Assembly (NCBI GenBank): GCA_963681505.1 | Contig: OY811989.1 | Span: forward strand, 5,163,335-5,227,334 | DNA length: 64,000 nt | Reading direction: 5' to 3' | Source: Eunapius fragilis | Lineage: Eukaryota; Porifera; Demospongiae; Spongillida; Spongillidae | Shown here: one piece after another, positions 3,401 through 34,800 of the stretch | Layout of the letters: each line of letters opens with the position of its first letter | How positions within the stretch are numbered: the first letter of the stretch is position 1 | Position numbers and translations under genes: made by a program | The notes under the pieces: generated by a model | Database searches by the model: none | Told to the model about the DNA's origin: nothing | Seen by the model: only the letters and a program-made list of their open reading frames with translations

Positions 3401-3784
3401 CATACATACTGACATACTTGACTCCTGCAGGAGTCATAAGTATTGAAATACTTGTCTCCTGCAGGAGTCATACATTGAAGTACTTGACTCCTGCAGGAGT
3501 CAGACATATTGACATACTTGACTCCTGCAGGAGACATAATTGAAATACTTGACTCCTGCAGGAGTCATACATTGAAAAAGTTGACTCATGCAGGAGTGAT
3601 ATATACTGGCATACTTGAAATACTTCACTCCTGCACGAGTCATATATTGAAATACGTGACTCCTGCAGGAGTCATTCATAGTGACATATTTGACTCCTGC
3701 AGGAGTCATACATGGAGATTGCTCACTCCTGCCGGAGTTATACATATTGACATATGAATCCTGTAGTAGTCATTGATACTGACA
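450..3784 (+). repeat. Family B palindromic satellite, block 1
   Basis: Roughly 100 tandem monomers of 32-34 bp. Each has the 18-bp perfect palindrome TGACTCCTGCAGGAGTCA (or a mutated form, with an internal PstI site CTGCAG) plus a 13-16-bp linker. Common linkers are ACATACTGACATACT, ACATTGAAATACT, GCAAATATATAGT and GCATGGAGATACT. Two monomers span about 22 codons. Because the core is a palindrome, both strands read TPAGV and DSCRS in different frames, which explains the many 60-140-codon open frames. The array is broken at 3784/3785 by a mobile element. Confidence 0.95.
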
Positions 3785-4070
3785 CAAGCAAATAAAAACA
3801 TTCTCTACGAGAAAGTTGGTGGGATATAGGATTGGATTATGACATTGGTGGTGTAAAAAGCAAGGAAACAAGGTCTTATCAGAAGGGAAAATGTCATAGT
3901 CCTATATTTACCACATTTCTAGGACATGTGTTGTTTGTGTGCTAAATATAGGACTATGACATTTACCCTTCTGATAAGACCTTGGTTCCTTGCTTTTTAC
4001 ACCACCAATGTCATAATCAAATCCTATATCCCACCAACTTTCTCGTAGAGAATGGTTTTATTTACTTGCT
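3785..4070. repeat. Terminal fold-back (long inverted repeat) of copy 1
   Basis: Two arms of about 125-130 bp with a few mismatches. The left arm begins CAAGCAAATAAAAACATTCTC and the right arm ends with the complement (TTTATTTACTTGCT). The loop of about 35 nt lies around 3930-3955, between CCTATATTTA and TAAATATAGG. Shared internal blocks with the fold-back at 10984-11266 include GTTGGTGG, GGTGGTGTAAAAAGCAAGG and CATTCTCTA. The outer end coincides with the element boundary in both copies, so it is an integral end rather than a separately inserted MITE. Confidence 0.85.
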
Positions 4071-4111
4071 TTCTTTATTTTTTTTCATACCCATTTAATT
4101 ATACAAGACAT
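4071..4111. other. AT-rich spacer inside copy 1
   Basis: Short AT-rich stretch between the fold-back and the nested MITE. It ends with ACAAGACAT (4103-4111), the left copy of the MITE target duplication. Nothing else is recognised. Confidence 0.6.
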
Positions 4112-4244
4112 TAGTCTCGTACCCAGACCGTCTATGACGTAAGCGATTATCGCTGTAAACAGTATAATCACTACGTCCATACGTATGGACGTAGTGTTTA
4201 CAGCGATAATCGCTTACGTCATAGACGGTCTGGGTACGAGACTA
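4112..4244. mobile_element. 133-bp palindromic MITE with 9-bp target duplication
   Basis: Arms of 50 bp (4112-4161 and 4195-4244) are perfect inverted repeats beginning TAGTCTCGTACCCAGACCG. The centre holds a nested 28-bp perfect palindrome (4169-4196, built on CCATACGTATGG) and an unpaired GTATAAT on the left. It is flanked by the direct repeat ACAAGACAT (4103-4111 and 4245-4253). A 9-bp duplication is typical of Mutator-like (9-11 bp) or Merlin-like (8-9 bp) transposases acting in trans; no transposase is in the window. Confidence 0.9.
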
Positions 4245-4253
4245 ACAAGACAT

Positions 4254-4613
4254 AGGAGGCTGATAGTCGATTGTTTATCAATGTATTATATTATATAAAA
4301 GCGAGTCCTCCAGCCGATTCTGAAGCTATTGGTGAAATTTTCATCGCTTAGAAATGTTTCTGTCCTGAGTTATGCGTGGGCAAGAAGGAGAAGACGACCC
4401 GCCCCTTGTTCCGAGACTGGGTACGAGGACGGGCAGTACACTCTTGTTCTCAACAACCACGCGGTTCAGCGACATGAAACAAACACGAAACTACTCATTT
4501 TTGACTTCTAGATTGATTGCTAAAAGAAGCTACACGACCCGATCGTCGGGAGTGTTGTTACAGACGGGTCGCGTTTTTTTAATGACATTCATAGTCGGGG
4601 TCAAATCCTGTAT
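4254..4613. other. Body of copy 1, related to 9251-9590; eroded open frame
   Basis: About 360 bp that are diverged but alignable with the reverse complement of 9251-9590. On the + strand, frames starting at 4329 (60 codons) and 4372 carry peptide matches to the - strand frame of copy 2: NVSVLSY with NVPVVSY, TGYEDGQ with TGYGRWG, and VFLMTF in both. In copy 1 the matches lie in two frames, so any ancestral frame has shifted. I recognise no protein family. Whether this was coding or is just conserved element sequence is open. Confidence 0.5.
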
Positions 4614-4635
4614 GGAAGTTTCTAACGAAACTTCC
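4614..4635. other. Terminal hairpin of copy 1 (9-bp stem, 4-nt loop)
   Basis: GGAAGTTTC (4614-4622), loop TAAC, then GAAACTTCC (4627-4635): a perfect stem lying two bases from the element end. It matches in position and size the hairpin of copy 2, with three compensated stem differences. Confidence 0.9.
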
Positions 4636-4637
4636 GA

Positions 4638-7600
4638 TACTTGACTCCTTCAGGTGTCATACATGGAGATACTTGACTCCTGCAGGAGTCATACATATTG
4701 AAATACTTGACTCCTGCAGGAGTAATACATTGAAATACTTGACTCCTGCAGGAGTCAGACATATTGATATACTTGACTCCTGCAGGAGTCATAATTGAAA
4801 TAATTGACTCCTGCAGGAGTCACACATTGAAATACTTGAGTGACATACTTGACTCCTGCAGGAGTCATACATACTGACATACTTGATTCCTGCAGAAGTC
4901 ATGCTTGGAGATACTTGACTCCTGCAGGAGTCATACATTGAGATACTTGACTCCTGCAGGAGTCTTGCATACTGACATACTTGACTCCTGCTGGAGTCAT
5001 GCAAATATATGTATGACTCCTGCAGAAGTCATACATACTGACATACTTGACTTCTGCAGGAGTCATACATATTGAAATACTTGACTCCTGCAGGAGTCAT
5101 ACATTGAGATACTTGACTCCTGCAGGAGTCTTGCATACTGACATACTTGACTCCTGCAGGAGTCATGCAAATATACAGTTGACTCATGCAGGAGTCATAC
5201 ATACTGGCATACTTGAAATACTTCACTCCTGCACGAGTCATGTATTGAAATACGTGACTCCTGCAGGAGTCATTCATAGTGACATATTTGACTCCTGCAG
5301 GAGTCATGCATGTAGATACTTGACTCCTGCAGGAGTTATACATTGAGATACTTGACTCCTGCAGGAGTCTTGCATACTGACATACTTGACTCCTGCAGGA
5401 GTCATACATACTGGCATACTTGAAATACTTCACTCCTGCACGAGTCATATATTGAAATACGTGACTCCTTCAGGAGTCATTCATAGTGACATATTTGACT
5501 CCTGCAGGAGTCATACATGGAGATTGCTCACTCCTGCCGGAGTCATACATATTGACATATGACTCCTGTAGTAGTCATTGATACTGACATACTTGACTCC
5601 TTCATACATGGAGATACTTGACTCCTGCAGGAGTCATACATATTGAAATACTTGACTCCTGCAGGAGTTATACATTGAAATACTTGACTCCTGCAGGAGT
5701 CAGACATATTGATATACTTGACTCCTGCAGGAGTCATAATTGAAATAATTGACTCCTGCAGGAGTCATACTTTGAAATACTTGAGTGACATACTTGACTC
5801 CTGCAGGAGTCATACATACTGACATACTTGACTCCTGCAGGAGTCATGGTTGGATATACTTGACTCCTGCAGGAGTCATACATTGAGATACCTGACTCCT
5901 GCAGGAGTCTTGCATACTGACATACTTGACTCCTGCAGGAGTCATGCAAATATATGTATGACTCCTGCAGGAGTCATACATACTGACATACTTGACTTCT
6001 GCAGGAGTCATACAAATTGAAATACTTGACTCCTGCCGGAGTCATACATTGAAATACTTGACTCCTGCAGGAGTCAGACACATTGACATACTTGACTTTT
6101 GCAGGAGTCATAATTTAAGTACTTGACTCCCACAGGAGTCATACATTGAAATTCTTGAGTGACATACTTGACTCCTACAGGAGTCTTACATACTGACATA
6201 CTTGACTCCTGCAGGAGTCATGCATGGAGAAACTTGACTCCTGCACGAGTCATACATTGAGATACTTGACTCCAGCAGGAGTCTTGCATACTGACATACT
6301 TGACTCCTGCAGGAGTCATGCAAATATATAGTTGACTCATGCAGGAGCCATACATACTGGCATACTTGACTCCTGCAGGAGTCATGCACGGAGATAAATG
6401 ACTCCTGGAGGAGTCATACATATTGACATACTTTACTCCTGCATGAGTCATTCATTGAAATATTTGACTCCTGCAGGAGTCATGCATACTGACAAATTTG
6501 ACTCTTGAAGGAGTCATACATTGAAACACTTGACTCCTGCAGGAGTCATTCATTGTAACATATTTGACTCCTACAGCAGTCATACAAACTGATATACTTG
6601 TCTCCTGCAGGAGTCATGCAAATTTATAGTTGACTCCTGCAGGAGTCTTACACACTGACATACTTGACTCCTGCAGGAGTCATAAATATTGAAATACTTG
6701 ACTCCTGCAGGAGTCATACATTGAAGTACTTGACTCCTGCAGGAGTCAGACATATTGACATACTTGACTCCTGCAGGAGTCATAATTGAAATACTTGACT
6801 CCTGCAGGAGTCATACATTGAAATTCTTGAGTGACATATTTGACTCTTGCAGGAGTCATACATAATGACATACTTGACTCCTGCAGGAGTCATGCATGGA
6901 GATACTTGACTCCTGCAGGGGGCGTACATTGAGATACTTGAGTCCTGCAGGAGTCTTGCATACTGACATACTTGACTCCTGCATGAGTCATGCAAATATA
7001 TAGTTGACTCATGCAGGAGTCATATATACTGGCATACTTGAAATACTTCACTCCTGCACGAGTCATATATTGAAATACGTGACTCCTGCAGGAGTCATTC
7101 ATAGTGACATATTTGACTCCAGCAGGAGTCATACATGGAGATTGCTCACTCCTGCCGGAGTCATACATATTGACATATGACTCCTGTAGTAGTCATTGAT
7201 ACTGACATACTTGACTCCTTCAGGTGTCATACATGGAGATACTTGACTCCTGCAGGAGTCATACATATAGAAATACTTGACTCCTGCAGGAGTTATACAT
7301 TGAAATACTTGACTCCTGCAGGAGTCAGACATATTGATATACTTGACTCCTGCAGGAGTCATAATTGAAATAATTGACTCCTGCAGGAGTCATACTTTGA
7401 AATACTTGAGTGACATACTTGACTCCTGCAGGAGTCATACATACTGACATACTTGACTCCTGCAGGAGTCATGGTTGGAGATACTTGACTCCTGCAGGAG
7501 TCATACATTGAGATACTTGACTCCTGCAGGAGTCTTGCATACTGACATACTTGACTCCTGCAGGAGTCATGCAAATATATGTATGACTCCTGCAGGAGTC

Positions 7601-9226
7601 ATACATACTGACATACTTGACTCCTGCAGTAGTCATACATACTGACATACATGACTCCTGCAGGAGTCATGCATGGAGATAAATGACTCCTGGAGGAGTC
7701 AAACATATTGACATACTTTACTCCTGCATGAGTCGTTCATTGAAATATTTGACTCCTGCAGGAGTCATGCATACTGACAAATTTGACTCTTGAAGGAGTC
7801 ATACATTGAAACACTTGACTCCTGCAGGAGTCATTCATTGTAACATATTTGACTCCTGCAGCAGTCATACAAACTGATATACTTGACTCCTGTAGGAGTC
7901 ATGCAAGTATATAGTTGACTTCTGCAGGAGTCATACATACTGACATACTTGACTCCTGCAGGAGTCATAAATATTGAAATACTTGACTCCTGCAGGAGTC
8001 ATACATTGAAGTACTTGACTCCTGCAGGAGTCAGACATATTGACATACTTGACTCCTGCAGGAGTCATAATTGAAATACTTGACTCCTGCAGGAGTCATA
8101 CATTGAAATTCTTGAGTGACATATATGACTCTTGCAGGAGTCATACATACTGACATACTTGATTCCTGCAGAAGTCATGCTTGGAGATACTTGACTCCTG
8201 CAGGAGTCATACATTGAGATACTTGACTCCTGCAGGAGTCTTGCATACTGACATACTTGACTCCTGCTGGAGTCATGCAAATATATGTATGACTCCTGCA
8301 GAAGTCATACATACTGACATACTTGACTTCTGCAGGAGTCATACATATTGAAATACTTGACTCCTGCAGGAGTCATACATTGAGATACTTGACTCCTGCA
8401 GGAGTCTTGCATACTGACATACTTGACTCCTGCAGGAGTCATGCAAATATACAGTTGACTCATGCAGGAGTCATACATACTGGCATACTTGAAATACTTC
8501 ACTCCTGCACGAGTCATGTATTGAAATACGTGACTCCTGCAGGAGTCATTCATAGTGACATATTTGACTCCTGCAGGAGTCATGCATGTAGATACTTGAC
8601 TCCTGCAGGAGTTATACATTGAGATACTTGACTCCTGCAGGAGTCTTGCATACTGACATACTTGACTCCTGCAGGAGTCATACATACTGGCATACTTGAA
8701 ATACTTCACTCCTGCACGAGTCATATATTGAAATACGTGACTCCTTCAGGAGTCATTCATAGTGACATATTTGACTCCTGCAGGAGTCATACATGGAGAT
8801 TGCTCACTCCTGCCGGAGTCATACATATTGACATATGACTCCTGTAGTAGTCATTGATACTGACATACTTGACTCCTTCATACATGGAGATACTTGACTC
8901 CTGCAGGAGTCAAACATATTGAAATACTTGACTCCTGCAGGAGTTATACATTGAAATACTTGACTCCTGCAGGAGTCAGACATATTGATATACTTGACTC
9001 CTGCAGGAGTCATAATTGAAATAATTGACTCCTGCAGGAGTCATACTTTGAAATACTTGAGTGACATACTTGACTCCTGCAGGAGTCATACATACTGACA
9101 TACTTGACTCCTGCAGGAGTCATGGTTGGATATACTTGACTCCTGCAGGAGTCATACATTGAGATACCTGACTCCTGCAGGAGTCTTGCATACTGACATA
9201 CTTGACTCCTGCAGGAGTCATGCAAA
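4638..9226 (+). repeat. Family B palindromic satellite, block 2
   Basis: About 140 monomers continuing the array after copy 1. The block contains all of the first unit of a 3276-bp tandem duplication (about 4861-8136) and the start of the second. It ends at the A^T insertion point of copy 2 (GTCATGCAAA^T). It contains no gene; the frames of up to 139 codons (for example 5029-5448 and 8305-8724, identical translations) are satellite. Confidence 0.95.
4861..8136 (+). repeat. First unit of 3276-bp satellite duplication (carries empty insertion sites)
   Basis: Distinctive variants recur at +3276 up to 9226 (4789-5448 region with 8065-8724; 5734 with 9010), at +5316 from 11267 to 12113 (6186 with 11502; 6580 with 11896) and at +7788 from 14861 to about 15924 (7177 with 14965; 7359 with 15147). 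The unit keeps the uninterrupted sequence at 5950/5951, the empty site of the 2040-bp element, and at 6797-7073, the satellite around the gypsy insertion. The exact junctions are uncertain by some tens of bases. Confidence 0.8.
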
Positions 9227-9228
9227 TC

Positions 9229-9250
9229 GGAACCTACGCGAGTAGGTTCC
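9229..9250. other. Terminal hairpin of copy 2 (9-bp stem, 4-nt loop)
   Basis: GGAACCTAC (9229-9237), loop GCGA, then GTAGGTTCC (9242-9250). It lies two bases from the element start. Compared with copy 1 read in the same orientation (GGAAGTTTC/GAAACTTCC), stem pairs 5, 6 and 8 differ and each change is matched on the other arm. Confidence 0.92.
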
Positions 9251-9590
9251 ATATAGGAATCCAACAGTATCATGAATGTCATTAAAAAAACGTCACTCAC
9301 GTCTAGCGGGACATTTAAGAATCGGGTCACTTTGCTCTTAGTGGCATTCGAGCGATATAAAAAAGGACAACAGTTCTGCGTTGTATTTGTGTCACAAGAC
9401 GGTGTACTTTTAGAGAACAAAAATACTCGTCCCCATCGTCCGTACCCAGTCCCACCTAAAATTTCTCCTCCGTCGGCTTCTTCTTCTTCTTCTTCCTTCC
9501 GGAGAGTATAACTCACGACAGGAACGTTTGTAAAGCACGCCAAGTGTACCAATCGCTTCAGGATGCGTCCGCAGGTTATCTTCGGGGGTC
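9251..9590. other. Conserved body segment of the element, with a - strand open frame
   Basis: The reverse complement aligns with 4254-4613. On the - strand, an open frame starting at 9552 runs about 108 codons through this segment and the hairpin before entering satellite; its satellite tail (9010-9226) is meaningless. The first part has a glutamate run (from a TTC repeat at 9479-9496) and ends near VFLMTF. I recognise no domain. Conservation of short peptides between the copies hints at former coding, but both copies are non-autonomous and this is unproven. Confidence 0.45.
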
Positions 9591-10657
9591 TGTTAGACGC
9601 CTAACTGTTCGGGCAATTAACTAAAGCGAATAGTACCTCATTTGGTATTCGGTTAAAAATACCCAATTACATCAGCTAGCTATTTTTAAATGCAATAATA
9701 GCCACGTGTCGTGGGCGTGATTCAAATTCTTAATATTCCCGCACGCTGTGGAAGAGGTATACGCACTGAATCCAAGAGCCTTTTCGGGTCCCTACGGCTC
9801 CATGTATAAATGTCCAACCATAATGCCAAATGGTTGAGAAACGGAATGGAGCAGCGATAACGTTATAGGAAGGCTCCTGACGAATATTCAAGGTATCATT
9901 TTCTGCATGACGCCTGTGCGTTACTCTCAACTCTTATCATTCGTTACGCAGCTTGAAATGAAAGCCAAAACTACCATACACGTAAGTACCCGACACTATC
10001 GCATATAATTGTTTTGACCGAATTGATTTCTATACTATAGCTTCTTATATAGCATAACTTTCGAATTCTGTCGGTGGAACTACATACGCGATCAGATACT
10101 ACGGTATACAGTCTACAGCAGATAATGTGAAGCAAGAGGCTCCAATTAGAATGTGTCTCCCCCACACCACCGCCCTTACAGAAAAAAAACCCGGCAACAA
10201 CTAGCCACTCGTACACCTACAGATATGCCAAACGAGTGCAATACAAGACACGACAAGGTGTCAAGCGCGCTACTGAAAGGACCATCAAAGCGACCACCCC
10301 GAAGGTGCGTTACACCATGAATGTTGGATCTGGACATAAATTATAGCATGTATAGTGTATCGCTAAAATATTTTATGCAACAGTTACAGCGGAAGATATT
10401 GCATCTCTCTCCGTGCTGTTGTTTGAAATATGTGCACGCTGTTCGCTGACAACAATTTCGTAATAATGTTAATGTGTATTGTGGTGCATAATTTATATCT
10501 AATAGTATCAAAGTTGCTGATGACAACGTATTGTGGTTTATCTGATAATAGCGTGAGATCAGTGGGTACATGTAATCTTTGTCTGATGTATTATATGGCT
10601 TCACTTGCCAGTGGAGGATTTGTTTTAACTAATGGTTGTTTAAATCACCTGTTTCAG
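9591..10657. other. Unassigned single-copy-looking sequence inside copy 2
   Basis: Mixed-composition sequence without tandem structure and without any coding region I can support. Short open frames occur on both strands (for example 9730-9930 and 9971-10216 on -, 10430-10699 on +), but none shows a recognisable motif. If the exon at 10658 is real, at least the 3' part of this stretch would be intron: it ends in a pyrimidine-leaning CACCTGTTTCAG acceptor. Confidence 0.5.
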
Positions 10658-10809
10658 GTCCAGGTCCAGGAGTGGTTCCATTTCCAGCTGCAGGATTAGC
10701 TCCACCTGCTCTACCTGCTATATATCCTGGATATACAGAAGTATATCCTGGTCCAGAATATACAGCAGTATATCCTATACAAGATGACATGCTCCTGGGT
10801 TATAAATGA
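10658..10809 (+). CDS. Partial: putative captured 3'-terminal exon, Pro/Tyr-rich C-terminus
   Basis: Follows a good splice-acceptor sequence (CACCTGTTTCAG, 10646-10657). The exon begins with two bases of a split codon, then reads 49 codons to TGA at 10807-10809. The peptide starts PGPGVVPFPAAGLAPPALPA, has the repeated motif YPGYTEVYPGPEYTAVYP, and ends IQDDMLLGYK. Low-complexity proline/tyrosine tails like this are common at the C-terminus of RNA-binding proteins, but I cannot name the family. An AATAAA follows 89 bp after the stop. No upstream exon or promoter is recognised, so within the element this looks like a captured 3' gene fragment. It lies on the strand that reads from the TC end. 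The open frame 10430-10699 overlaps it in another frame and is probably a shadow. Confidence 0.5.
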
Positions 10810-10897
10810 AATACTTGTACTTATTGTTTAAATAGTAATACTGTGTGTTTTAATGGTACACCCACACCTCAAAAATTGCATGGCCACGAGATTCTAA

Positions 10898-10903
10898 AAT
10901 AAA
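10898..10903 (+). promoter_or_regulatory. Poly(A) signal AATAAA
   Basis: Canonical hexamer in ATTCTAAAATAAAACTGTC, in the right position for the 3' UTR of the exon ending at 10809. It supports a mature gene 3' end rather than random open sequence. Confidence 0.55.
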
Positions 10904-10983
10904 ACTGTCATTTGACATTCTTGCTACATGGTTACTTTTCAAGAACTAAATACAATACTAAATCTACCAAAAAATGTAGGAAA

Positions 10984-11266
10984 CAAGTGATAAAAACATT
11001 CTCTATGCGAGAAGGTTGGTGGTATATAGGAATCAAAGGCGGTGGTGGTGTAAAAAGCAAGGGAACAAGGATTGTGATTGAAAAGGAAAAATGAAATAGA
11101 CCTATATTAGCACACACAGTTAAACATGACGACATGCTGCTAATATAGGTCTATCTCTTTTTTCCTTTTCAATCACAATCCTTGTTCCCTTGCTTTTTAC
11201 ACCACCACCGCCTTTGATTCCTATATACCACCAACCTTCTCGCATAGAGAATGTTTTTATCACTTG
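10984..11266. repeat. Terminal fold-back (long inverted repeat) of copy 2
   Basis: Near-perfect arms of about 125 bp. The left arm begins CAAGTGATAAAAACATTCTC and the right arm ends GAGAATGTTTTTATCACTTG. The loop (CACACACAGTTAAACATGACGACATGCTG in part, around 11111-11139) is flanked by CCTATATTAG and CTAATATAGG. Arms and layout match the fold-back of copy 1, but the loop and inner arm segments differ. Open frames called on both strands here are products of the inverted repeat. Confidence 0.9.
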
Positions 11267-12113
11267 TATATGTATGACTCCTGCAGGAGTCATACATACT
11301 GACATACTTGACTTCTGCAGGAGTCATACAAATTGAAATACTTGACTCCTGCCGGAGTCATACATTGAAATACTTGACTCCTGCAGGAGTCAGACACATT
11401 GACATACTTGACTTTTGCAGGAGTCATAATTTAAGTACTTGACTCCCACAGGAGTCATACATTGAAATTCTTGAGTGACATACTTGACTCCTACAGGAGT
11501 CTTACATACTGACATACTTGACTCCTGCAGGAGTCATGCATGGAGAAACTTGACTCCTGCACGAGTCATACATTGAGATACTTGACTCCAGCAGGAGTCT
11601 TGCATACTGACATACTTGACTCCTGCAGGAGTCATGCAAATATATAGTTGACTCATGCAGGAGCCATACATACTGGCATACTTGACTCCTGCAGGAGTCA
11701 TGCACGGAGATAAATGACTCCTGGAGGAGTCATACATATTGACATACTTTACTCCTGCATGAGTCATTCATTGAAATATTTGACTCCTGCAGGAGTCATG
11801 CATACTGACAAATTTGACTCTTGAAGGAGTCATACATTGAAACACTTGACTCCTGCAGGAGTCATTCATTGTAACATATTTGACTCCTACAGCAGTCATA
11901 CAAACTGATATACTTGTCTCCTGCAGGAGTCATGCAAATTTATAGTTGACTCCTGCAGGAGTCTTACACACTGACATACTTGACTCCTGCAGGAGTCATA
12001 AATATTGAAATACTTGACTCCTGCAGGAGTCATACATTGAAGTACTTGACTCCTGCAGGAGTCAGACATATTGACATACTTGACTCCTGCAGGAGTCATA
12101 ATTGAAATACTTG
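11267..12113 (+). repeat. Family B palindromic satellite, block 3
   Basis: About 26 monomers between copy 2 and the gypsy element. It matches 5951-6797 at a constant offset of 5316 (same variants, for example the frames at 6186 and 11502), so it is the continuation of the second 3276-bp unit. Confidence 0.93.
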
Positions 12114-12276
12114 TGTAGTACTATTGCCGAGAGTCTATAGCAAATCACTGTAATATAAAATTACAAGCAGACTGCCCCTAAAAGGGCAATACAGGGTTTA
12201 AATACATCCACCAGCGCATGCGTGGAGCTGGCCAAGCACTACGCATAGAAGTACAGAATAATATAGCATCACTACA
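12114..12276 (-). repeat. 3' LTR of the gypsy element (163 bp)
   Basis: Bounded by TG and CA with a 6-bp inverted repeat, TGTAGT/ACTACA. The left edge meets satellite (AAATACTTG) exactly and the right edge meets the polypurine tract. Short LTRs of this size are normal for some Ty3/gypsy lineages. It contains a TATA-like box. Only one LTR remains, so no LTR-LTR age estimate is possible. Confidence 0.85.
12197..12204 (-). promoter_or_regulatory. TATA-like box in the LTR
   Basis: TATTTAAA on the - strand, within GATGTATTTAAACCC, at a plausible position for an LTR promoter. No canonical AATAAA is seen in the LTR. Confidence 0.4.
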
Positions 12277-12290
12277 CTACTCCCCTTTTC
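12277..12290 (-). other. Polypurine tract
   Basis: On the - strand GAAAAGGGGAGTAG lies directly before the LTR start TGTAGTGATGC, as expected for plus-strand priming in LTR retrotransposons. Confidence 0.8.
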
Positions 12291-12327
12291 AAAGAGGCAC
12301 TTCCACGATCCGGACGAAGTTTTGACG

Positions 12328-14121
12328 TCACCAAACAGGATTCCAGCCATACCGGGAGGGGGCGTTACGTGTACGTTTGGGGTAGCGGGAGGCCGATTGT
12401 TCCGGTGGCGATTGACGTACTCGTTTCTGATGTCTGGACCTACCAGATTCGTCAGATCTCGACGCCGGGCTTACTGCTGTTTCAGACTCGAGAGCTGCGC
12501 CTTCAGGGTTCACACCAGGAGCCAATTCTGGTGCGGTGTGTGAACGTTCTCTAGGGGCCGGCGGAAGTTCAGCAAGGCCAGACCCATCCGGCTCTTGTTC
12601 CTCATTCCGAGTCCCGGGATCCACCACGACGTCTTGATCGTCTTCTTCAAAAAACTGAAGCTGAATCCCAGGGGGCTGTGCAGGCTCACGACGATCACTG
12701 CTCGCATCAGTATTTTGCACTTCATCGCCTACAGGTTTTATCCGTATATTGTCCGGACAGGGTTTCAACCGATCGAAGTGCACTACAACTCTTTTTCGTG
12801 AGCCAGGGCGTTTATCCTGGATCCTGTACACAACGGGCGATATTTTTTTGATAACCTTGAAGGGCCCAGTCCATGGGCAGTGCAGCTTTCTTGACCTCCC
12901 CCTCGGCACCACCGGGTTGTTCAACCACACCAATTCCCCGACCTGAAACTCCCGCCCATGCACCCTTTTGTTGTACAATTCTTCCGATCTGACAGCTGTT
13001 GCCTTCAGGTGTTCTCGGGCCTTCTCATAAGCGCCCTCCATGGTAGCTTTTAATGTTTTCACATACTGATGAGGCAACACAGGTTCTGTCGGACAAGAAC
13101 CGTACATAATGTCCACCGGGAGTCTAGCAAGGCGACCAAACATTAAGTAGAATGGTGCATAGCCCGTTGACGGATGAACGGATGTATTGTAGGCCATACA
13201 TACCTTCCTGAGATGCTGTTCCCAATTACTCGGGTCTTCCTCCACGGTACTAGCCAGCATGGCCAACATCGTCCGATTAAAACGCTCAACCAGTCCATCC
13301 GATTGGGGATGGTAGGGTGTAGTGCGCGTCTTGTCAATCTGAAGAAGACGACAGACTTCCTGCATCACATTGGCCTCGAACTGTCGCCCTTGGTCCGAAT
13401 GCAGCTGCTCAGGAACTGAAAACCTACAAAAGAACTCATCCACTAATTTATTAGCCACTGTCACCGCCTCTTGATTGGGGATCGCGTAAGCCTCGACCCA
13501 TCGGGTAAAATAATCAGATGCCACCAGGATGTACGTATTTTCAGATTTGGAAGGAGTTAATGGTCCAACTATGTCCACTGCCACCAGCTGCAATGGGTAG
13601 CCTGCTGTCATGCTCTGAAGGGGGGCTCTGCTCTTGTGAGAAGGGTTCTTTCTTGTCACCTCCTCCAGTGGTACCATAACATTTCTGAATTGAAGGGTGT
13701 TCTTTGACAGGTCAATGACGCCTCCATATTTCTTCAGAAAATCTGATCCAACGATGCAATCTACACCGAGCATATCAACAACAACAAAGTCAGACACAAA
13801 AGTTGTACCAGCAATGTCCAATTGCAACGTCGATACACCACATACTGAAACAGGGCTACCTTCCACACCAACCAATTTGTGTCCCTCCCACGGTGCTAGG
13901 CTACAGTTGACTCCCTCCAGCTGGCTCCAAGCCGTCTTCTTAAATAGACTCACTGTGGCGCCAGTGTCAACCATGCATTTAACAATCTTATTTTTCACAC
14001 AGGCTGTTATACAAGGTGATGATGCGGGGTTTATTGCTAAACTACAATGGACCATTGTATTAAGTCCCTCATGCACTTGGTCCCTAGTGGTGAGGGGTTC
14101 TAGTTTCCCTGCTTCGAGCAT
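12328..14121 (-). CDS. pol: Gypsy Pol remnant: protease fused to integrase, RT and RNase H deleted
   Basis: A 597-codon frame without stops. Residues about 35-155 are a retropepsin: active-site DTG at 52-54 in MVDTGATVSLF, with a later hydrophobic CIVGSDFL. Residues about 165 onward are integrase: D183 (AVDIVGPL), D243 (HSDQG) and E279 (LVERFN), giving the DD35E spacing, then a GPF-type C-terminal module (GPFKVIKK, about 419) and a long acidic/proline tail ending with a basic segment. A gypsy Pol would normally carry about 600-700 residues of RT-RNase H plus an HHCC zinc domain between these parts. Here PLEEV (151-155) runs straight into TRKNPSHKSRAPLQ, the sequence just before the integrase core, so the loss is in frame. 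Catalytic residues remain. The frame start overlaps the gag end by 22 bp, suggesting a frameshift arrangement. Confidence 0.92.
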   Translation of the reverse strand: MLEAGKLEPLTTRDQVHEGLNTMVHCSLAINPASSPCITACVKNKIVKCMVDTGATVSLFKKTAWSQLEGVNCSLAPWEGHKLVGVEGSPVSVCGVSTLQLDIAGTTFVSDFVVVDMLGVDCIVGSDFLKKYGGVIDLSKNTLQFRNVMVPLEEVTRKNPSHKSRAPLQSMTAGYPLQLVAVDIVGPLTPSKSENTYILVASDYFTRWVEAYAIPNQEAVTVANKLVDEFFCRFSVPEQLHSDQGRQFEANVMQEVCRLLQIDKTRTTPYHPQSDGLVERFNRTMLAMLASTVEEDPSNWEQHLRKVCMAYNTSVHPSTGYAPFYLMFGRLARLPVDIMYGSCPTEPVLPHQYVKTLKATMEGAYEKAREHLKATAVRSEELYNKRVHGREFQVGELVWLNNPVVPRGRSRKLHCPWTGPFKVIKKISPVVYRIQDKRPGSRKRVVVHFDRLKPCPDNIRIKPVGDEVQNTDASSDRREPAQPPGIQLQFFEEDDQDVVVDPGTRNEEQEPDGSGLAELPPAPRERSHTAPELAPGVNPEGAALESETAVSPASRSDESGRSRHQKRVRQSPPEQSASRYPKRTRNAPSRYGWNPVW

Positions 14122-14860
14122 TTGCCCTCAGCAGCGCAGTTTCTTGCGATATGGCCCACCTGCCCACATCTGTAGCATACAATTCGCTTACTTCCGCCCC
14201 CACCACCTGTACCAGTCGTCCGCATTGGTCTCTTGCCAGCCACCGTTCCCCCTAACGAAGTTTCCAACCTTTCCAGCCGCTCTGCCCAAGGAAAAAAATC
14301 TTGCAAGTTCTGGCATGATTCATGCATGATTTTCGAACCAATCCGTACTCTACCCGTAATCTTTCATGTGCGATGCAAGACGTTGCATGATCATGCATGG
14401 TCATGCATGATTGTCCGAAAATCATGCATGATTCTTGCAAGATTTAGCATGATTCTTTGCAAGATGGCATGCAAGATTTTTTTCCTTGGGTGTTAATGCT
14501 TTCAGCATTTCTACCACCGCGTCCTGTCCGCTACCACTGGAAGACGTGACGGAAATACTGTGGGCTTCTGCTTCCTCTGCGACCGCTGATGCATTGAGCT
14601 CTTGTCGCAATCCCGGGCGGAGATAGGACTGTATCTCCAGCGTCGCGGTGACAGCTTCGTCGATAGTTTTCGGCTCTCGCTGTCGAACAGCAAATGCAAC
14701 CTGAGGGTTATCAAGCTCACCTAGGTATCTCTCGAGAGCAAGCAATTCTTTTGCTTTATCGTCCAGCTCTGGTAAAGCCTTTTCAGCCAGGACTCGTAGC
14801 TCGTCTGCGAAATCACCCCAAGACTCATCTCTCTTGCGTCTCCTGGCCTGAAATTCAACA
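14100..14860 (-). pseudogene. gag: Gag fragment split by an inserted fold-back element
   Basis: The upstream part (14491-14860, - strand) resembles a gypsy capsid C-terminal region: FQARRRKRDESWGDFADELR, ALPELDDKAKELLALERYL and a helical tail ending VVEMLKALT. The downstream part (14100-14284) has AERLERLETSL, a glycine stretch and a CCHC nucleocapsid knuckle CYRCGQVGHIARNC (CX2CX4HX4C), stopping at 14100. Between them 206 bp of fold-back DNA introduce stops. The N-terminus is missing at the satellite junction near 14860; the ATG at 14886 belongs to the satellite, so the apparent start MTPAGV is a chance fusion. Confidence 0.85.
14285..14490. mobile_element. 206-bp fold-back MITE inserted in gag
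   Basis: Perfect 20-bp terminal inverted repeats: CCCAAGGAAAAAAATCTTGC at 14285-14304 and its complement at 14471-14490. The interior is made of short GCATGATT/AATCATGC and TTGCAAGA words in both orientations, and the arms pair further with gaps. No clear target duplication is visible next to the repeats. Its position between capsid and zinc knuckle shows that it came in after the gypsy sequence. Confidence 0.75.
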
Positions 14861-14964
14861 AAATACGTGACTCCTGCAGGAGTCATTCATAGTGACATAT
14901 TTGACTCCAGCAGGAGTCATACATGGAGATTGCTCACTCCTGCCGGAGTCATACATATTGACAT

Positions 14965-19699: not shown

Positions 19700-22600
19700 G
19701 TGACATATTTGACTCCTGCAGCAGTCATCCAATCTGACATACTTGACTCCTGCAGGAGTCATGCAAACATATAGTTGACTCCTGCAGGAGTCATACATAT
19801 TGACATACTTGACTCCTGCAGGACTCATACATTCTGACATACTTGACTCCTGCAGGAGTCATGAATGGAGATACTTGACTCTTGCAGGAGTCATACATAT
19901 TGACATATTTGACTACTGCAGGAGTCATACATTGAAATACTTGACTCCTGCAGGAGTCATACATTGAAATTCTTGAGTGACGTGCTTGAGTCCTGCAGGA
20001 GTCATACATTCTGACATACTTGACTCCTGCAGGAGTCATGCATGGAGATTCTTGACTCCTGCAGGAGTCATGCATTGAAATACTTGACTCCTGCGGGAGT
20101 CATACATTGAAATACTTGACTCCTGCAGGAGGCGTTGATACTGACATACTTGACTCCAGCAGGTGTCATGTAAGGAGATCCTTGAATCCTGCAAGAGTCA
20201 TACATATTGACTTTCTTGACTCCTGCAGGAGTCATTCATTGAAATACTTCACTCCTGCAGGAGTCATATATTGAAATACGTGACTCCTGCAGGAGTCATT
20301 CATAGTGACATATTTGACTCCTGCAGGAGCCATACATGGAGATTGCTCACTCCTGCAGGAGTCATCCATTTTGACATATGACTCCTGTAGTGGTCATTGA
20401 TACTGACATACTTGACTCCTTCAGGACTCATACATGGAGATACATGACTCCAGCAGGAGTCATACATATTGAAATACGTGACTCCTGCAGGAGTCATACA
20501 TTGAAATACTTGACTCCCGCAGGAGTCAGACATATTGACATACAGGACTCCTTCAGGAGTCATAATTGAAATAATTGACTCCTGCAGGAGATATACATTG
20601 AAATACTTGAGTGACATAATAGACTCCTGCAGGAGTCATACATACTGACATACTTGACTCCTGCAGGAGTCATGCATGGAGATACTTGACTCCTGCAGGA
20701 GTCATACATTGAGATACTTGACTCATGCAGGAGTCTTGCATACTGACATACTTGACTCCTGCAGGAGTCATGGAAATATATATTTGACTTCTGCAGGAGT
20801 CATACAGACTGACATACTTGACTCCTGCAGGAGTCATGCATGGAGATACATGACTCCTGGAGGAGTCATACATATTGACATAGTTTACTCCTGCAGGAGT
20901 CCTTCATTGAAATATATGACTCCTGCAGGAGTCATGCAAATATATAGTTGACTCCTGCAGGAGTCATACATACTGACATACTTGACTTGTGCAGGAGTCA
21001 TACATTGAAACACTTGACTCCTGCAGGAGTCATGCAAATATAGAGGTGACTCCTGCAGGAGTCATACATATTGACATATTTGACTCCTGCAGGAGTCATA
21101 CATTGATATACTTGACTCCTGCGGGAGTCATATATTGAAATACTTGACTCCTGCAGGAGTCATTGATACTGACATACTAGACTCCTGCAGGTGTCATGTA
21201 TGCAGATCCTTGACTCCTGCAAGAGTCATACATATTGACATTCTTGACTCCTGCAGGAGTCATAATTGAAATACTTGACTCCTGCAGGAGTCATACATTG
21301 AAATTCTTGAGTGACATACCTGACTCCTGCAGGGGTCATACATACTGACATACTTGACTCCCGCAGGCGTCATGCTTGGAGAAACTTGACTCCTGCAGGA
21401 GTCATACATTGAGATACTTGACTCCTGCAGGAGTCTTGCATAGTGACATACTTGACTCCTGCAGGAGTGATGCAAATATATATTTGACTCGTGCAGGAGT
21501 CACACATACTGACATACTTGGCTCCTGCAGGAGTCATGCATGGAGATACATGACTTCTGGAGGAGTCATACATATTGACATACTTTACTCCTGCAGGAGT
21601 CCTCCATTGAAATATGTGACTCCTGCAGGAGTCATGCATACTGACAAACTTGACTCATGTAGGAGTCATACATTGAAATACTTGACTCCTGCAGGAGTCA
21701 TGCAAATATATAGTTGACTCATGCAGGAGTCATACATACTGGCATACTTGAAATACTTCACTCCTGCACGAGTCATATATTGAAATACGTGACTCCTTCA
21801 GGAGTCATTCATAGTGACATATTTGACTCCTGCAGGAGTCATACATGGAGATTGCTCACTCCTGCCGGAGTCATACATATTGACATATGACTCCTGTAGT
21901 AGTCATTGATACTGACAAACTTGACTCCTTCAGGTGTCATACATGGAGATACTTGACTCCTGCAGGAGTCATACATATTGAAATACTTGACTCCTGCAGG
22001 AGTTATACATTGAAATACTTGACTCCTGCAGGAGTCAGACATATTGATATACTTGACTCCTGCAGGAATCATAATTGAAATAATTGACTCCTGCAGGAGT
22101 CATACATTGAAATACTTGAGTGACATACTTGACTCCTGCAGGAGTCATGCATACTGACATAATTGACTCCTGCAGGAGTCATGCTTGGACATACTTGACT
22201 CCTGCAGGAGTCATACATTGAGATACTTGACTCCTGCAGGAGTCTTGCATACTGATATACTTGACTCCTGCAGGAGTCATGCAAATATATGTATGACTCC
22301 TGCAGAAGTCATACATACTAACATACTTGACTTCTGCAGGAGTCATACATATTGAAATACTTGACTCCTGCAGGAGTCATACATTGAGATACTTCACTCC
22401 TGCAGGAGTCTTGCATACTGACATACTTGACTCCTGCAGGAGTCATGCAAATATAAGTATGACTCCTGCAGGAGTCATACATACTGACATACTTGACTCC
22501 TGCAGGAGTCATACATACTGACATACTTGACTCCTGCAGGAGTCATGGTTGGAGATACTTGACTCCTGCAGGAGTCATACATTGAGATACTTGACTCCTG

Positions 22601-28803: not shown

Positions 28804-31800
28804 GCAGCGATATGTATTCATGGAACGAACAAGTAACCTGTGTTTTTACTCTTAAACATGCCTCCTATATATTCAGACTATTGGTTTGGCTGTACGATGC
28901 AAATAGATTAGTGGTTCCCTCCCATACATTTCTATGGGAGAAAATTGGCTATGTTCCAACCACGGTGTTATTTAAACAAACTAGTACAGTTGCGATATGT
29001 ATTCATGGAACGAACGAGTAACCTGTTTTCTTTCTCTAAATAATGCCTCCTATAAATTCAGCTCATTGGTTTGGCTGTACGATGCTAATAGATTAGTGGT
29101 TCCCTCCCATACATTTCTATGGGAGAAAATTGGCTATGTTCCAACCAAGGTGTTCATTTAACAAACTAGTGGAATTGCGATATGTATTCATGGAACGAAC
29201 GAGTATCCTGTTTTCTTTCTCTAATAAATGCCTCCTATTTTATCAGCATATTGGTTTGGCTGTACGATGCAAATAGATTAGTGGTTCCCTCCCATACATT
29301 TCTATGGGAGAAAATTGGCTATCTTCCCACCAAGGTGTTAATTTAACAAACTAGTGGAGTTGCGATCCTACTTCATGGAACGAACGAGAAACCTGTTTTC
29401 TTTTACAAAATTATGCCTCCTCTATAATCAGCTCATTGGTTAGGCTGTACCATTCAAATAGATTAGTGGTTCCCTCCCATACATTTCTATGGGAGAAAAT
29501 TGGCTATGTTCCAACCAAGGTGTTAATATAACAAACTAGTGGAGTTGCGATATGTATTCATGGAACGAACGAGTAACCTGTTTTCTTTCTCAAAATAATG
29601 CCTCCTATTTATTCAGCATATTGGTTTGGCGGTACAATGCAAATAGATTAGTGGTTCCCTCCCATACATTTCTATGGGAGAAAATTGGCTACGTTCCAAC
29701 GACGGTGTTAATTTAACAAACTAGTGGAGTTGCAATATGTATTCATGGAACGAACGAGTAACCTGTTTTCTTTCTCTAAATAATGCCTCCTATTTATTCA
29801 GCATATTGGTTTGGCGGTACAATCCAAATAGATTAGTGGTTCCCTCCCATACATTTCTATGGGAGAAAATTGGCTATGTTCCAACCAAGGTGTTAATTCA
29901 ACAAACTAGTGGAGTTGCGATATGTATTCACGGAACGAACGAGTAACCTGTTTTCTTTCTCTAAATAATGCCTCCTATATATTCAGCTCATTGGTATGGC
30001 TGTACGATGCTAATAGATTAGTGGTTCCCTCCCATACATTTCTATGGGAGAAAATTGGCTATGTTCCAACCAAGGTGTTCATTTAACAAACTAGTGCAAT
30101 TGCGATATGTATTCATGGAACGAACGAGTAACCTGTTTTCTTTGTCTAAATAATGCCTCCTATTTATTCAGCATATTGGTTTGGCTGTACAATGCAAATA
30201 GATTAGTGGTTCTCTCCCATACATTTCTATGGGAGAAAATTGGCTATGTTCCAACCGCGGTGTTAATTTAACAAACTAGTGGATTTGCGATATGTATTCA
30301 TGGAACGAACGACTAACCTGTTTTCTTTCACTAACAATTGCCTCCGATTTATTCAGCATATTGGTTTGGCTGTACGATGCAAATAGATCAGTGGTTCCCT
30401 CCCATACATTTCTATGGGAGAAAATTGGCTATGTTGCAACCAAGGTGTTAATTGAACAAACTAGTGGAGTTGCAATATGTATTCATGGAACGAACGAGTA
30501 ACGTGTTTTCTTTCTCTAAATAATGCCTCCTATACATTCAGCACATTGGTTTGGCTGTACGATGCAAAAAGATTAGTGGTTCCCTCCCATACATTTCTAT
30601 GGGAGAAAATTGGCTATGTTCCAATAACGGTGTTAATTTATCAAACTAGTGGAGTTGCGATATGTATTCATGGAACAAACGAGTGACCTGTTTTCTTTCT
30701 CTAAATAATGCCTCCTATTTATTCAGCTCATTGGTTTGGCTGTACGATGCAAATAGATTAGTGGTTCCCTCCCATACATTTCTATGGCAGAAAAAAGGCT
30801 ATCTTCCCACCAAGGTGTTAATTTAACAAACGAGTGGAGTTGCGATCCTACTTCATGGAACGAACGAGTAACCTGTTTTCTTTTACAAAATAATGCCTCC
30901 TCTATAATCAGCTCATTCGTTTGGCTGTACCAATCAAATAGATTAGTGGTTCCCTCCCATACATTTCAGTGGGAGAAAATTGGCTATGTTCCCACCAAGG
31001 TGTTAATATAACAAACTAGTGGAGTTGCGATCCAACTTCATGGAACGAACGAGTAACCTGTTTTCTTTTACAAAATAATGCCTCCTATATATTCAGCTCA
31101 TTGGTATGGCTGTACGATGCAAATAGATTAGTGGTTCCCTCCCATACATTTCTGTGGGAGAAAATTGGCTATGTTCCAACCACGGTGTTAATTTAACAAA
31201 CTAGTGGAGTTGCGATCCTACTTCATGGAACGAACGAGTAACCTGTTTTCTTTTTCAAAATAATGCCTCCACTATAATCAGCTGATTGGTTTAGCTGTAC
31301 CATTCAAATAGATTAGTGGTTCTCTCCCATACATTTCTATGGGAGAAAATTGGCTATGTTCCAACCACGGTGTTAATTTAACAAACTAGTGGAGTTGCGA
31401 TATGTATTCATGGAACGAACGAGTAACCTGTTTTCTTTCTCTAAATCATGCCGCCTATATATTCAGCTCATAGGTTTGGCTGTACGATGCAAATAGATTA
31501 GTGGTTCCCTCCCATGCATTTGTATGGGAGAAAATTGGCAATCTTCCCACCAAGGTGTTAATTTAACAAACTAGTGGAGTTGCGATCCTACTTCATGGAA
31601 CGAACGAGTAACCTGTTTTCTTTTACAAAATAATGCCTCCACTATAATCAGCTGATTGGTTTAGCTGTACCATTCAAATAGATTAGTGGTTCCCTCCCAT
31701 ACATTTCTATGGGAGAAAATTGGCTATGTTCCAACCAAGGTGTTAATTTAACAAACTAGTGGAATTGCGATATGTATTCATGGAACGAACGAGTAACCTG

Positions 31801-34800
31801 TTTTCTTTCTCTAAATAATGCCTCCTATTTATTCAGCATATTGGTTTGGCTGTACGATGCAAATAGATTAGTGGTTCCCTCCCATACATTTCTATGGGAG
31901 AAAAGTATCTATGTTCCAACCAAGGTGTTAATTTAACAAACTAGTGGAATTGCGATCCTACTTCATGGAACGAACGAGTAACCTGTTTTCTTTTACAAAA
32001 TAATGCCTCCTCTATAATCAGCTCATTGGTTTGTCTGTTCCATTCAAATAGATTAGTGGTTCCTTCCCATACATTTCTATGGGAGAAAATTGGCTATGTT
32101 CCAACCACGGTGCTAATTTAACAAACTAGTGGAGTTGCGATATGTATTCATGGAACGAACGAGTAACCTGTTTTCTTTCTCTAAATAATGCCTCCTATAT
32201 ATTCAGCTCATTGGTTTGGCTGTACCATTCAAATAGATTAGTGGTTCCCTCCCATACTTTTCTATGGGAGAAAATTGGCTATGTTCCAACCACGGTGTTA
32301 GTTTAACAAACTAGTGGAGTTGCGATATGTATTCATGGAACGAACGAGTAACCTGTTTTCTTTCTCTAAATAATGCCGCCTATATATTCAGCTCATAGGT
32401 TTGGCTGTACAATGCAAATAGATTAGTGGTTCCCTCCCATACATTTGTATGGGAGAATATGGGCTATCTTCCCACTAAGGTGTTAATTTAACAAACTAGT
32501 GGAGTTGCGATCCTACTTCATGGAACGAACGAGCAACCTGTGTTCTTTTACAAAATAATGCCTCCTCTATAATCAGCTCATTGGTTTAGATGTACCATTC
32601 AAATAGATTAGTGGTTCCTTCCCATACATTTCTATGGGAGAAAATTGGCTATGTTCCAACCAAGGTGTTAATTTAACAAACTAGTGGAATTGCGATATGT
32701 ATCCATGGAACGAACGAGTAACCTGTTTTCTTTCTCTAAACAATGCCTGCTATTTATTCAGCATATTGGTTTGGCTGTACGATGCAAATAGATTAGTGGT
32801 TCCATCCCATACATTTCTATTGGAGAAAATTATCTATGTTCCAACCAAGGTGTTAATTTAACAAACTAGTGGAGTTGCGATATGTATTCATGGAACGAAC
32901 GAGTAACCTGTTTTCTTTCTCTAAATAATGCCGCCTATATATTCAGCTCATAGGTTTGGCTGTACGATGCAAGTAGATTAGTGGATCCCTCCCATACATT
33001 TGTATGGGAGAAAATTGGCTATGTTCCAACCAAGGTGTTAATTTAACAAACTAGTGGAATTGCGATCCTACTTCTTGGAACGAACGAGTAACCTGTATTC
33101 TTTTACAAAATAATGCTTCCTCTATAATCAGCTCATTGGTTTGGCTGTACCATTCAAATAGATTAGTGGTTCCCTCCCATACATTTCTACGGGAGAAAAT
33201 TGGCTATGTTCCAAGCACGGTGTTAATTTAACAAACTATTGGAGTTGTGATATGTATTCATGGAACGAACGAGTAACCTGTTTTCTTTCTCTTAATAATG
33301 CCTACTATATATTCAGCACATTGGTTTGGCTCTACGATGCAAATAGATTAGTGGTTCCCTCCCATACATTTCAATGGGAAAAAATTGGCTATGTTCCAAA
33401 CACGGTGTTAATTTAACAAACTAGTGGAGTTGCGAAGTGTATTCACGGAACGAACGAGTAACAAGTTTTCTTTCTCTAAATAATGCCTCCTATATATTCA
33501 GCTCATTGGTTTGGCTGTACGATGCTAATAGATTAGTGGTTCCCTCCCATACATTTCTATGGGAGAAAATTGGCTATGTTCCAACCAAGGTGTTAATTTA
33601 ATAAACTAGTGGAATTGCGATATGTATTCAAGGAACGAACGAGTAACCTGTTTTCTTTCTCAAAATAATGCCTCCTACATATTCAGCTCATTGGTTTTGC
33701 TGTTCAATGCAAATAGATTAGTGGTTCCCTCCCATACATTTCTATGGGAGAAAATTGGCTATGTTCCAACCACGGTGTTAATTTAACAAACTAGTGGAGT
33801 TGCGATATGTATTCATGGAACGAACGAGTAACCTGTTTTCTTATACAAACTAATGCCTCCTCTATAATCAGCTCATTGCTTTGGCTTTACCCTTCCAATA
33901 GATTAGTGGTTCCCTCTCATACATTTCTATGGGAGAAAATTGGCTATGTTCCAACCAAGGTGTTACTTTATCAAACTAGTGGAGTTGTGATATGTATTCG
34001 TGGAACGAACGAGTAACCTGTTTTCTTTCTCTAATAAATGCCTCCTATTTATTCAGCATATTGGTTTGGCTGTACAATGCAAATAGATTAGTGGTTCCCT
34101 CCCATACATTTCTATGGGAGACAGTTGGCTATGTTCCAACCACGGTGTTAATTTAACAAACTAGTGGAGTTGCGATATGTAATCATGGAACGAACGAGTA
34201 ACCTGTTTTCTTTCTCTAAATAATGCCTCCTATATATTCAGCTCATTGGTTTGGCTGTACCATTCAAATAGATTAGTGGTTCCCTCCCATACATTTCAAT
34301 GGGAGAAAATTGACTATGTTCCAACCAAGGTGTTAATTTAACAAACTAGTGGAGTTGCGATATGTATTCATGGAACGAACGAGTAACCTGTTTTCTTTCT
34401 CTAAATAATGCCTCCTATATATTCAGCTCATTGGTTTGGCTGTACGATGCAAATAGATAAGAGGTTCCCTCCCATACATTTCTATGGGAGAAAATTGGCT
34501 ATGTTCCAACCACGGTGTTAATTTAACAAACTAGTGGAGTTGCGATCCAACTTCATGGAACGAACGAGTAACCTGTTTTCTTTTACAAAATAATGCTTCC
34601 TCTATAATCAGCTCATTGGTTTGGCTGTACCATTCAAATAGATAAGTGGTTCCCTCCCATACATATCTATGGGAGAAAATTGGCTATGTTCCAACCAAGG
34701 TGTTAATTTAACAAACTCCTGGAATTGCGATATGTATTCATGGAACGAACGAGTAACCTGTTTTCTTTCTCTAAATAATGCCTCCTATTTATTCAGCATA

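What the first reader, a model, noticed from the sequence alone, without database searches (positions are those of the whole stretch)
3785..11266. Two copies of an apparently undescribed Helitron-like element family, with an empty site preserved in the same window
The insertions at 3785-4637 (-) and 9227-11266 (+) share both termini (TCGGAA... and ...CTTG) and both sit at A^T with no resolvable target duplication. For the second, the uninterrupted target GTCATGCAAA^TATATGTATG is present at 5941-5960 in a paralogous satellite unit, and unit offsets change by exactly 2040 bp across it. TC start, A^T target and no duplication are established Helitron features; CTTG instead of CTRR is not, so this may be a variant class. 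A one-base A/T duplication would give the same sequence and cannot be excluded.
Basis: partly seen in the sequence, partly recalled or inferred. Interest (0 to 1): 0.82.

Follow-up and report, generated by a model that had tools for sequence, protein, structure and literature searches.

The report
Two rolling-circle transposons in satellite DNA
Two related pieces of mobile DNA, most likely moved by rolling-circle (Helitron-type) transposition, sit cleanly inside a satellite array, and their right end is an unusually long hairpin whose two halves have changed together.

Summary
Two insertions, 3785-4637 (-) and 9227-11266 (+), share TCGGAA/CTTG ends and sit at A^T without resolvable duplication; empty sites exist for both. 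Copy 2's joined flanks match 5651-6250 at 600 of 600 bases. A Helitron-like (rolling-circle) reading is well supported, but the reason given for a new class is not: CTTG ends are published for HELPO2 of Pleurotus. (1) A 9-bp hairpin directly follows TC in both copies; 3 of 9 pairs changed on both sides. (2) A 3' hairpin lies 11-12 nt from the end. (3) The two ends share an asymmetric inverted repeat, clear in copy 2 (1 of 5000 shuffles), weak in copy 1 (477 of 5000). This resembles the published Helitron2 end design. (4) Unexpected: the whole right end is a 283-284-bp palindrome. Between copies, 21 of 25-26 arm substitutions and 9 of 9 gap columns are mirrored on both arms (chance about 1.8 substitutions), so the arms are copied from each other or strongly constrained. 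No transposase was found (55 of 55 open stretches); no relatives could be fetched.

The parts
9227..11266 (+). Copy 2, complete element, 2040 bp, TC...CTTG
   Evidence: Ends and empty site 600/600 at 5651-6250
3785..4637 (-). Copy 1, complete element, 853 bp including a nested 133-bp MITE plus its 9-bp duplication
   Evidence: Ends and empty sites
9229..9250 (+). Copy 2 5' terminal hairpin, 9-bp stem, 4-nt loop, starts 2 nt from the end
   Evidence: DNA fold of the left 74 nt, z -3.26, 3 of 200 shuffles as good
4614..4635 (-). Copy 1 5' terminal hairpin, same geometry, 3 of 9 pairs changed on both sides
   Evidence: DNA fold of the left 74 nt, z -2.43, 2 of 200 shuffles as good; pairs compared by reading
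9272..9292 (+). Copy 2 left-end core of 21 nt, identical in copy 1 at the same distance (46-66) from the end
4572..4592 (-). Copy 1 left-end core of 21 nt
9242..9264 (+). Copy 2 left asymmetric inverted repeat
   Evidence: 78% complementary to 11213-11235; 1 of 5000 shuffles reach the left/right-end score
11213..11235 (+). Copy 2 right asymmetric inverted repeat, just upstream of the 3' hairpin and overlapping it by 3 nt
11233..11255 (+). Copy 2 3' hairpin, 11 nt from the CTTG end
   Evidence: Fold of the last 50 nt, z -3.61, 2 of 200 shuffles as good; position
3797..3817 (-). Copy 1 3' hairpin, 12 nt from the CTTG end
   Evidence: Fold of the last 50 nt, z -2.72, 5 of 200 shuffles as good; position
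10984..11266 (+). Copy 2 right-end palindrome, 283 bp, arms 129 nt, 98% complementary, 25-nt centre
   Evidence: z -32.7
3785..4068 (-). Copy 1 right-end palindrome, 284 bp, arms 131 nt, 95% complementary, 22-nt centre
   Evidence: z -31.4
5651..6250 (+). Empty-site paralogue of copy 2 (junction 5950^5951)
6907..7507 (+). One empty-site paralogue of copy 1 with A^T at the junction
10658..10809 (+). Weak: possible captured last exon (acceptor-like ...TTTCAG before it, stop at 10809, AATAAA at 10898)
   Evidence: Read by eye, positions; no Pfam, NCBIfam or PDB match up to E 1

Best explanation
Both are non-autonomous rolling-circle transposons with Helitron2-type ends, mobilised by a RepHel protein encoded elsewhere in this eukaryotic genome. 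Shown: precise insertion at one dinucleotide step (one-base ambiguity), shared ends, hairpins at both ends, an asymmetric inverted repeat in copy 2, a long right-end palindrome with mirrored changes. Inferred: the Rep domain nicks before TC, one strand is displaced, and the right-end hairpin marks the stop; the freed strand or circle is joined into an A^T step without target duplication. Pairing of the left and right asymmetric repeats would open the 5' hairpin and mark the end of a replication round, as Bao and Jurka suggest for Helitron2. The 130-bp stem is a much enlarged stop structure, kept near-perfect while the element is mobile, most likely because one arm serves as template for the other, and decaying after insertion.
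For: Empty sites for both copies. TC start, A^T, no resolvable duplication. 5' hairpins with paired changes. 3' hairpin 11-12 nt from the end, as in Helraiser (11 nt; passages). Asymmetric repeat: copy 2 score 31, 1 of 5000 shuffles; 0 of 326 overlapping interior segments and 0 of 502 segments of the 28.8-64 kb satellites reach it; sum of both copies 2 of 5000. Published Helitron2 and FoHeli end features (passages). Mirrored arm changes: 21, against 25 right-arm and 26 left-arm differences, null mean 1.8, maximum 8 in 10000 trials; 9 of 9 gap columns (4 runs) mirrored. Copy 2, the apparently younger one, has 2 stem mismatches, copy 1 has 5, of 122.
Against: No RepHel or other transposase: of all 55 open stretches of at least 32 aa, none passes a Pfam cut-off and none matches a Rep, helicase or transposase model. 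The asymmetric repeat is weak in copy 1 (477 of 5000 shuffles), and copy 1's right end pairs better with copy 2's left end (score 23) than with its own (18). Only two copies. Helitron2 of Chlamydomonas inserts after TTTT and Helentrons at TT, not A^T. No palindrome of this length appears in the Helitron passages read. The mirrored changes rest on one four-arm alignment of two elements.
Confidence: 0.72

Rival explanations
1. Canonical Helitron1 with a CTTG end (HELPO2-like); the 5' hairpin and asymmetric repeat are incidental.
For: TC start, A^T, 3' hairpin 11-12 nt from the end, CTTG precedent; the asymmetric repeat is weak in copy 1.
Against: A 9-bp perfect hairpin at the same place in both copies with 3 both-sided changes; asymmetric repeat at 1 of 5000 shuffles in copy 2.
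Confidence: 0.2
2. A DDE cut-and-paste element without target duplication (Spy-like).
For: No resolvable duplication; AT-rich target.
Against: Spy inserts within AAATTT (passages); targets here are CAAA^TATA and AGTA^TGTC. No terminal inverted repeat: first 10 bases agree with the reverse-complemented end at 3 (copy 1) and 2 (copy 2) positions.
Confidence: 0.03
3. An unknown HUH or recombinase system with terminal hairpins (Replitron-, IS200/605- or Crypton-like).
For: Hairpins at both ends and no resolvable duplication.
Against: Replitrons and Cryptons carry short direct repeats at or near the ends (Replitron feature recalled; Crypton feature in a passage); the longest word shared between the first and last 30 bases is 4 nt in both copies and none lies at a terminus.
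Confidence: 0.05
4. The palindrome is a separate foldback element that landed beside another insertion.
For: It is a complete 283-284-bp inverted repeat.
Against: In both copies the outer palindrome border is exactly the insertion border, and the joined flanks leave no extra base.
Confidence: 0.02

Closest known systems
Helitron2 (Bao and Jurka 2013, PMC3627910; passages)
   Same: 5' T, 5' terminal hairpin 0-2 nt from the end, 3' hairpin, asymmetric inverted repeat upstream of the 3' hairpin (clear in copy 2 only), compensatory changes between related elements, no target duplication in Helitron-1N1_CRe
   Different: A^T instead of TTTT^T/C; CTTG end; right-end palindrome of about 284 bp; no RepHel seen
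FoHeli1/2 of Fusarium oxysporum (PMC5148889; passages)
   Same: TC directly followed by a hairpin, asymmetric inverted repeat, hairpins at both ends, the same kind of one-base uncertainty at the border
   Different: 3' end ATTTT; target given as TNAT^A in the text and TNAT^T in a legend
Canonical Helitron1, e.g. Helraiser (PMC4778049; passages) and HELPO2 (PMC4289320; passages)
   Same: TC start (T[C/G] for the Pleurotus families), A^T, 3' hairpin (11 nt from the end in Helraiser); CTTG in HELPO2
   Different: Helitron1 is described as lacking a 5' hairpin; its 3' palindrome is 16-20 nt
Proto-Helentron of Phytophthora infestans (PMC4067079; section 11)
   Same: A^T and no duplication although its RepHel groups with Helentrons
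   Different: 5' TT, 3' CTAG, autonomous element of about 14 kb

Membership tests
Helitron2 | 5' terminal hairpin 0-2 nt from the end | tested here: met
   Both copies, 2 nt from the end
Helitron2 | Asymmetric terminal inverted repeats | tested here: inconclusive
   Met in copy 2 (1 of 5000 shuffles), weak in copy 1 (477 of 5000); sum 2 of 5000
Helitron2 | 3' hairpin immediately downstream of the 3' repeat | tested here: met
   Both copies have the hairpin; in copy 2 repeat 11213-11235, hairpin 11233-11255, 3-nt overlap; copy 1 repeat is weak
Helitron2 | Insertion after TTTT, as in the described Chlamydomonas families | tested here: not met
   A^T in both, with one-base ambiguity; given for particular families, so not taken as defining the group
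Helitron2 | RepHel of the Helitron2 clade | not testable with these tools
   No Rep or helicase match in either copy; no genome held to look for an autonomous copy
Helitron1 (canonical) | 5' TC | tested here: met
Helitron1 (canonical) | 3' CTRR | tested here: not met
   CTTG in both; CTTG precedent in HELPO2
Helitron1 (canonical) | A^T target, no duplication | tested here: met
   Empty sites for both; a 1-bp T duplication cannot be excluded
Helitron1 (canonical) | Only one hairpin, at the 3' end | tested here: not met
   5' hairpin in both copies
Helentron / HINE | TT target | tested here: not met
   A^T; TT target from passages
Spy (PHIS, DDE) | AAATTT target | tested here: not met
   CAAA^TATA and AGTA^TGTC; definition from passages
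Spy (PHIS, DDE) | Terminal inverted repeats (recalled for Spy) | tested here: not met
   3 and 2 identities in the first 10 bases

The most novel reading that the evidence does not exclude
A Helitron2-type lineage whose right end is a 130-bp-stem palindrome that is rebuilt from one arm during transposition (fold-back copying at the 3' end), so that most substitutions and the indels appear on both arms. That would be a new way for a rolling-circle transposon to make and renew its 3' end.
Probability: 0.15. Interest if true: 0.72.

Novelty: new variant of a known kind. Interest (0 to 1): 0.42.

Why it matters
It joins traits that the papers read describe for separate Helitron groups: Helitron2-type hairpins and asymmetric repeat, with the Helitron1-type TC start and A^T target. 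The mirrored substitutions and indels of the right-end palindrome, whose outer 108 bases are perfect in the apparently younger copy while mismatches are scattered in the other, point to arm-to-arm copying. That gives a testable handle on how rolling-circle elements stop and renew their 3' end.

Tried and rejected
Own-genome search: no genome is held. Exact-pattern scans with a 20-nt right-end core and a 21-nt left-end core: 0 matches in viral contigs and 0 in genome contigs; these collections are not eukaryotic, so this says little. A 29-mer of the 62-bp repeat in viral contigs: 0. Satellite core in the paper library: 0 papers. All 55 translated open stretches of at least 32 aa in the two elements (counted) were scanned against Pfam, 10 and 45: 7 stretches gave 8 matches up to E 1, all below the curated cut-offs (best VWA_CoxE E 0.0018 in an arginine-rich stretch, zf-C3H2C3 0.0061, DUF2688 0.01), taken as chance. 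Stretches under 32 aa were not scanned. Possible captured exon: no PDB or NCBIfam match. Rfam over 3600-11500: 0 at gathering score.

Rejected: Spy-like DDE element, independent foldback insertion, and the argument that CTTG alone makes a new class. Left open: whether the mirrored arm changes come from gene conversion in the chromosome, copying during transposition, or selection for pairing. Mirrored indels speak for copying over stepwise compensation, but two copies cannot settle it.

Literature limits: 10 searches of the open-access library were used. 'Helitron' with 'long palindrom' gave 4 papers. I read passages of two of them (PMC4778049; PMC10797722) and saw only the listing of the other two (PMC4486113, PMC2775673). 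Passages of PMC6927752 held nothing on end structure. Nothing read describes a long right-end palindrome in a Helitron; that is no proof of absence, and Repbase was not available.

Full report
Observation. The window begins with a short stretch of a 62-bp repeat and then a satellite array built on TGACTCCTGCAGGAGTCA. No whole genome is held for it; that it is eukaryotic is inferred from the satellites and mobile elements. Two non-satellite insertions interrupt the array: copy 1, 3785-4637 on the minus strand (853 bp), and copy 2, 9227-11266 on the plus strand (2040 bp). Both begin TCGGAA and end CTTG, with A before and T after. Joined 300-bp flanks of copy 2 match 5651-6250 at 600 of 600 bases; those of copy 1 match seven paralogues at 93-95% over about 600 columns without a gap at the junction. 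Among the at most 14 matches printed per insertion, 14 of 14 for copy 2 and 13 of 14 for copy 1 read A^T; the exception, A^A in 21617-22217, is the closest full-length paralogue of copy 1, and two of the other rows are out of register. The segment duplication behind the copy 2 empty site has 1 mismatch in 1941 bp, so copy 2 probably inserted recently. No third copy was found in the window.

Left end. In both copies a 9-bp stem with a 4-nt loop begins two bases from the end. Folding the left 74 nt as DNA gives z -3.26 and -2.43 (3 and 2 of 200 shuffles fold as well). The two stems share GGAA/TTCC and differ at three of nine pairs, each changed on both sides, none broken (read). A 21-nt core is identical at positions 46-66 in both. 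An alignment of the first ~340 bp shows further scattered similarity.

Right end. A hairpin lies 11 nt (copy 2) or 12 nt (copy 1) from the end; the last 50 nt give z -3.61 and -2.72 (2 and 5 of 200 shuffles as good). In Helraiser a 19-bp palindrome lies 11 nt from the end (PMC4778049, passages). Here the hairpin is nested in a palindrome of 284 bp (copy 1) or 283 bp (copy 2), arms 131 and 129 nt, 95% and 98% complementary, folding at -135 and -151 kcal/mol (z -31.4 and -32.7). The palindrome begins CAAG and ends CTTG, so the element's last bases are the palindrome's last bases in both copies.

Asymmetric inverted repeat. In copy 2, 9242-9264 is 78% complementary to 11213-11235. The left 60 bp against the reverse complement of the last 70 bp scores 31; 1 of 5000 dinucleotide shuffles of the left end reaches this, and neither 326 overlapping interior segments nor 502 segments of the 28.8-64 kb satellites do (repetitive, so not independent). 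In copy 1 the same test is weak (score 18; 477 of 5000). The sum of both is reached by 2 of 5000. Cross-copy scores are 23 (copy 2 left with copy 1 right; 3 of 500 shuffles) and 12 (copy 1 left with copy 2 right; 428 of 500). So the repeat is established for copy 2 only.

Mirrored evolution of the palindrome. I aligned the four arms and left out the first 16 columns (centre); 122 ungapped stem columns remain. Between copies the right arms differ at 25 and the left arms at 26; 21 are the same change on both arms. Independent arms would give 1.8 on average (maximum 8 in 10000 trials). All 9 gap columns (4 runs) are mirrored too. Within-copy mismatches are 5 (copy 1) and 2 (copy 2). With the centre left in, the columns were 97 unchanged, 23 both-arm, 11 one-arm, 11 gapped, 3 other and 2 arm-specific but shared between copies. 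The centres of the two palindromes align, so one ancestral palindrome is likelier than two origins. Mirrored indels are hard to reach by stepwise compensation and favour copying of one arm from the other. Arm mismatch in copy 1 (5 of 122, about 4%) is near its flank divergence from the best paralogues (about 5-7%), as expected if the arms were identical at insertion and drifted since; this last step is inference.

What it is. The ends fit Helitron2 as described by Bao and Jurka (PMC3627910, passages): 5' T, 5' hairpin 0-2 nt from the end, asymmetric inverted repeats, 3' hairpin, compensatory changes between relatives. FoHeli elements of Fusarium show the same TC-plus-hairpin left end and a similar one-base uncertainty (PMC5148889, passages). 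The A^T target fits canonical Helitrons and the proto-Helentron (PMC4067079, passages and sections 5 and 11), not Helitron2 of Chlamydomonas or Helentrons. CTTG is published for HELPO2 (PMC4289320, passages).

Mechanism. Shown: precise insertion, hairpins, palindrome and its mirrored changes, asymmetric repeat in copy 2. Inferred: RepHel in trans, nick before TC, strand displacement, stop at the right-end hairpin, joining at A^T. The Helraiser paper reports its 3' hairpin as a transposition terminator whose loss raises read-through (passages); a 130-bp stem could be a stronger stop. None of all 55 open stretches of at least 32 aa passes a Pfam cut-off, so both copies are taken as non-autonomous. 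A possible captured last exon in copy 2 (10658-10809) is unproven.

Verdict. Real; best read as a Helitron-like element with Helitron2-type ends; new variant of a known kind; the main open point is the long palindrome.

Noticed in passing
4112-4244: A 133-bp palindromic MITE with TAGTCTCGTACCCAGACC ends is nested in copy 1, flanked by a 9-bp direct repeat ACAAGACAT (4103-4111, 4245-4253), which would suit a Mutator-type element (recalled).
   Followed up: partly
about 12114-14870: A retroelement fragment on the minus strand interrupts the satellite; the 597-aa ORF 12328-14121 has aspartyl protease and integrase matches (rve E 2.4e-14).
   Followed up: partly
14285-14490: A 206-bp element with CCCAAGGAAAAAAATCTTGCA inverted ends sits in the gag-like part of that retroelement, flanked by TG on both sides, perhaps a 2-bp target duplication (frames compared by eye).
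   Followed up: partly
28807-64000: A 185-bp satellite (28807-37483) gives way to a G/T-rich array of TGGTAGTGGGAT units with GC skew up to 0.97, broken by islands of a 62-bp CAATTCGGCGC repeat; a related 62-bp repeat also lies near the window start (222-436).
   Followed up: no
8133-9226 and 11267-12113 against 4857-6797: A near-identical duplication of the satellite (offset 3276 before the insert, 1 mismatch in 1941 bp) suggests recent unequal exchange or segmental copying.
   Followed up: partly
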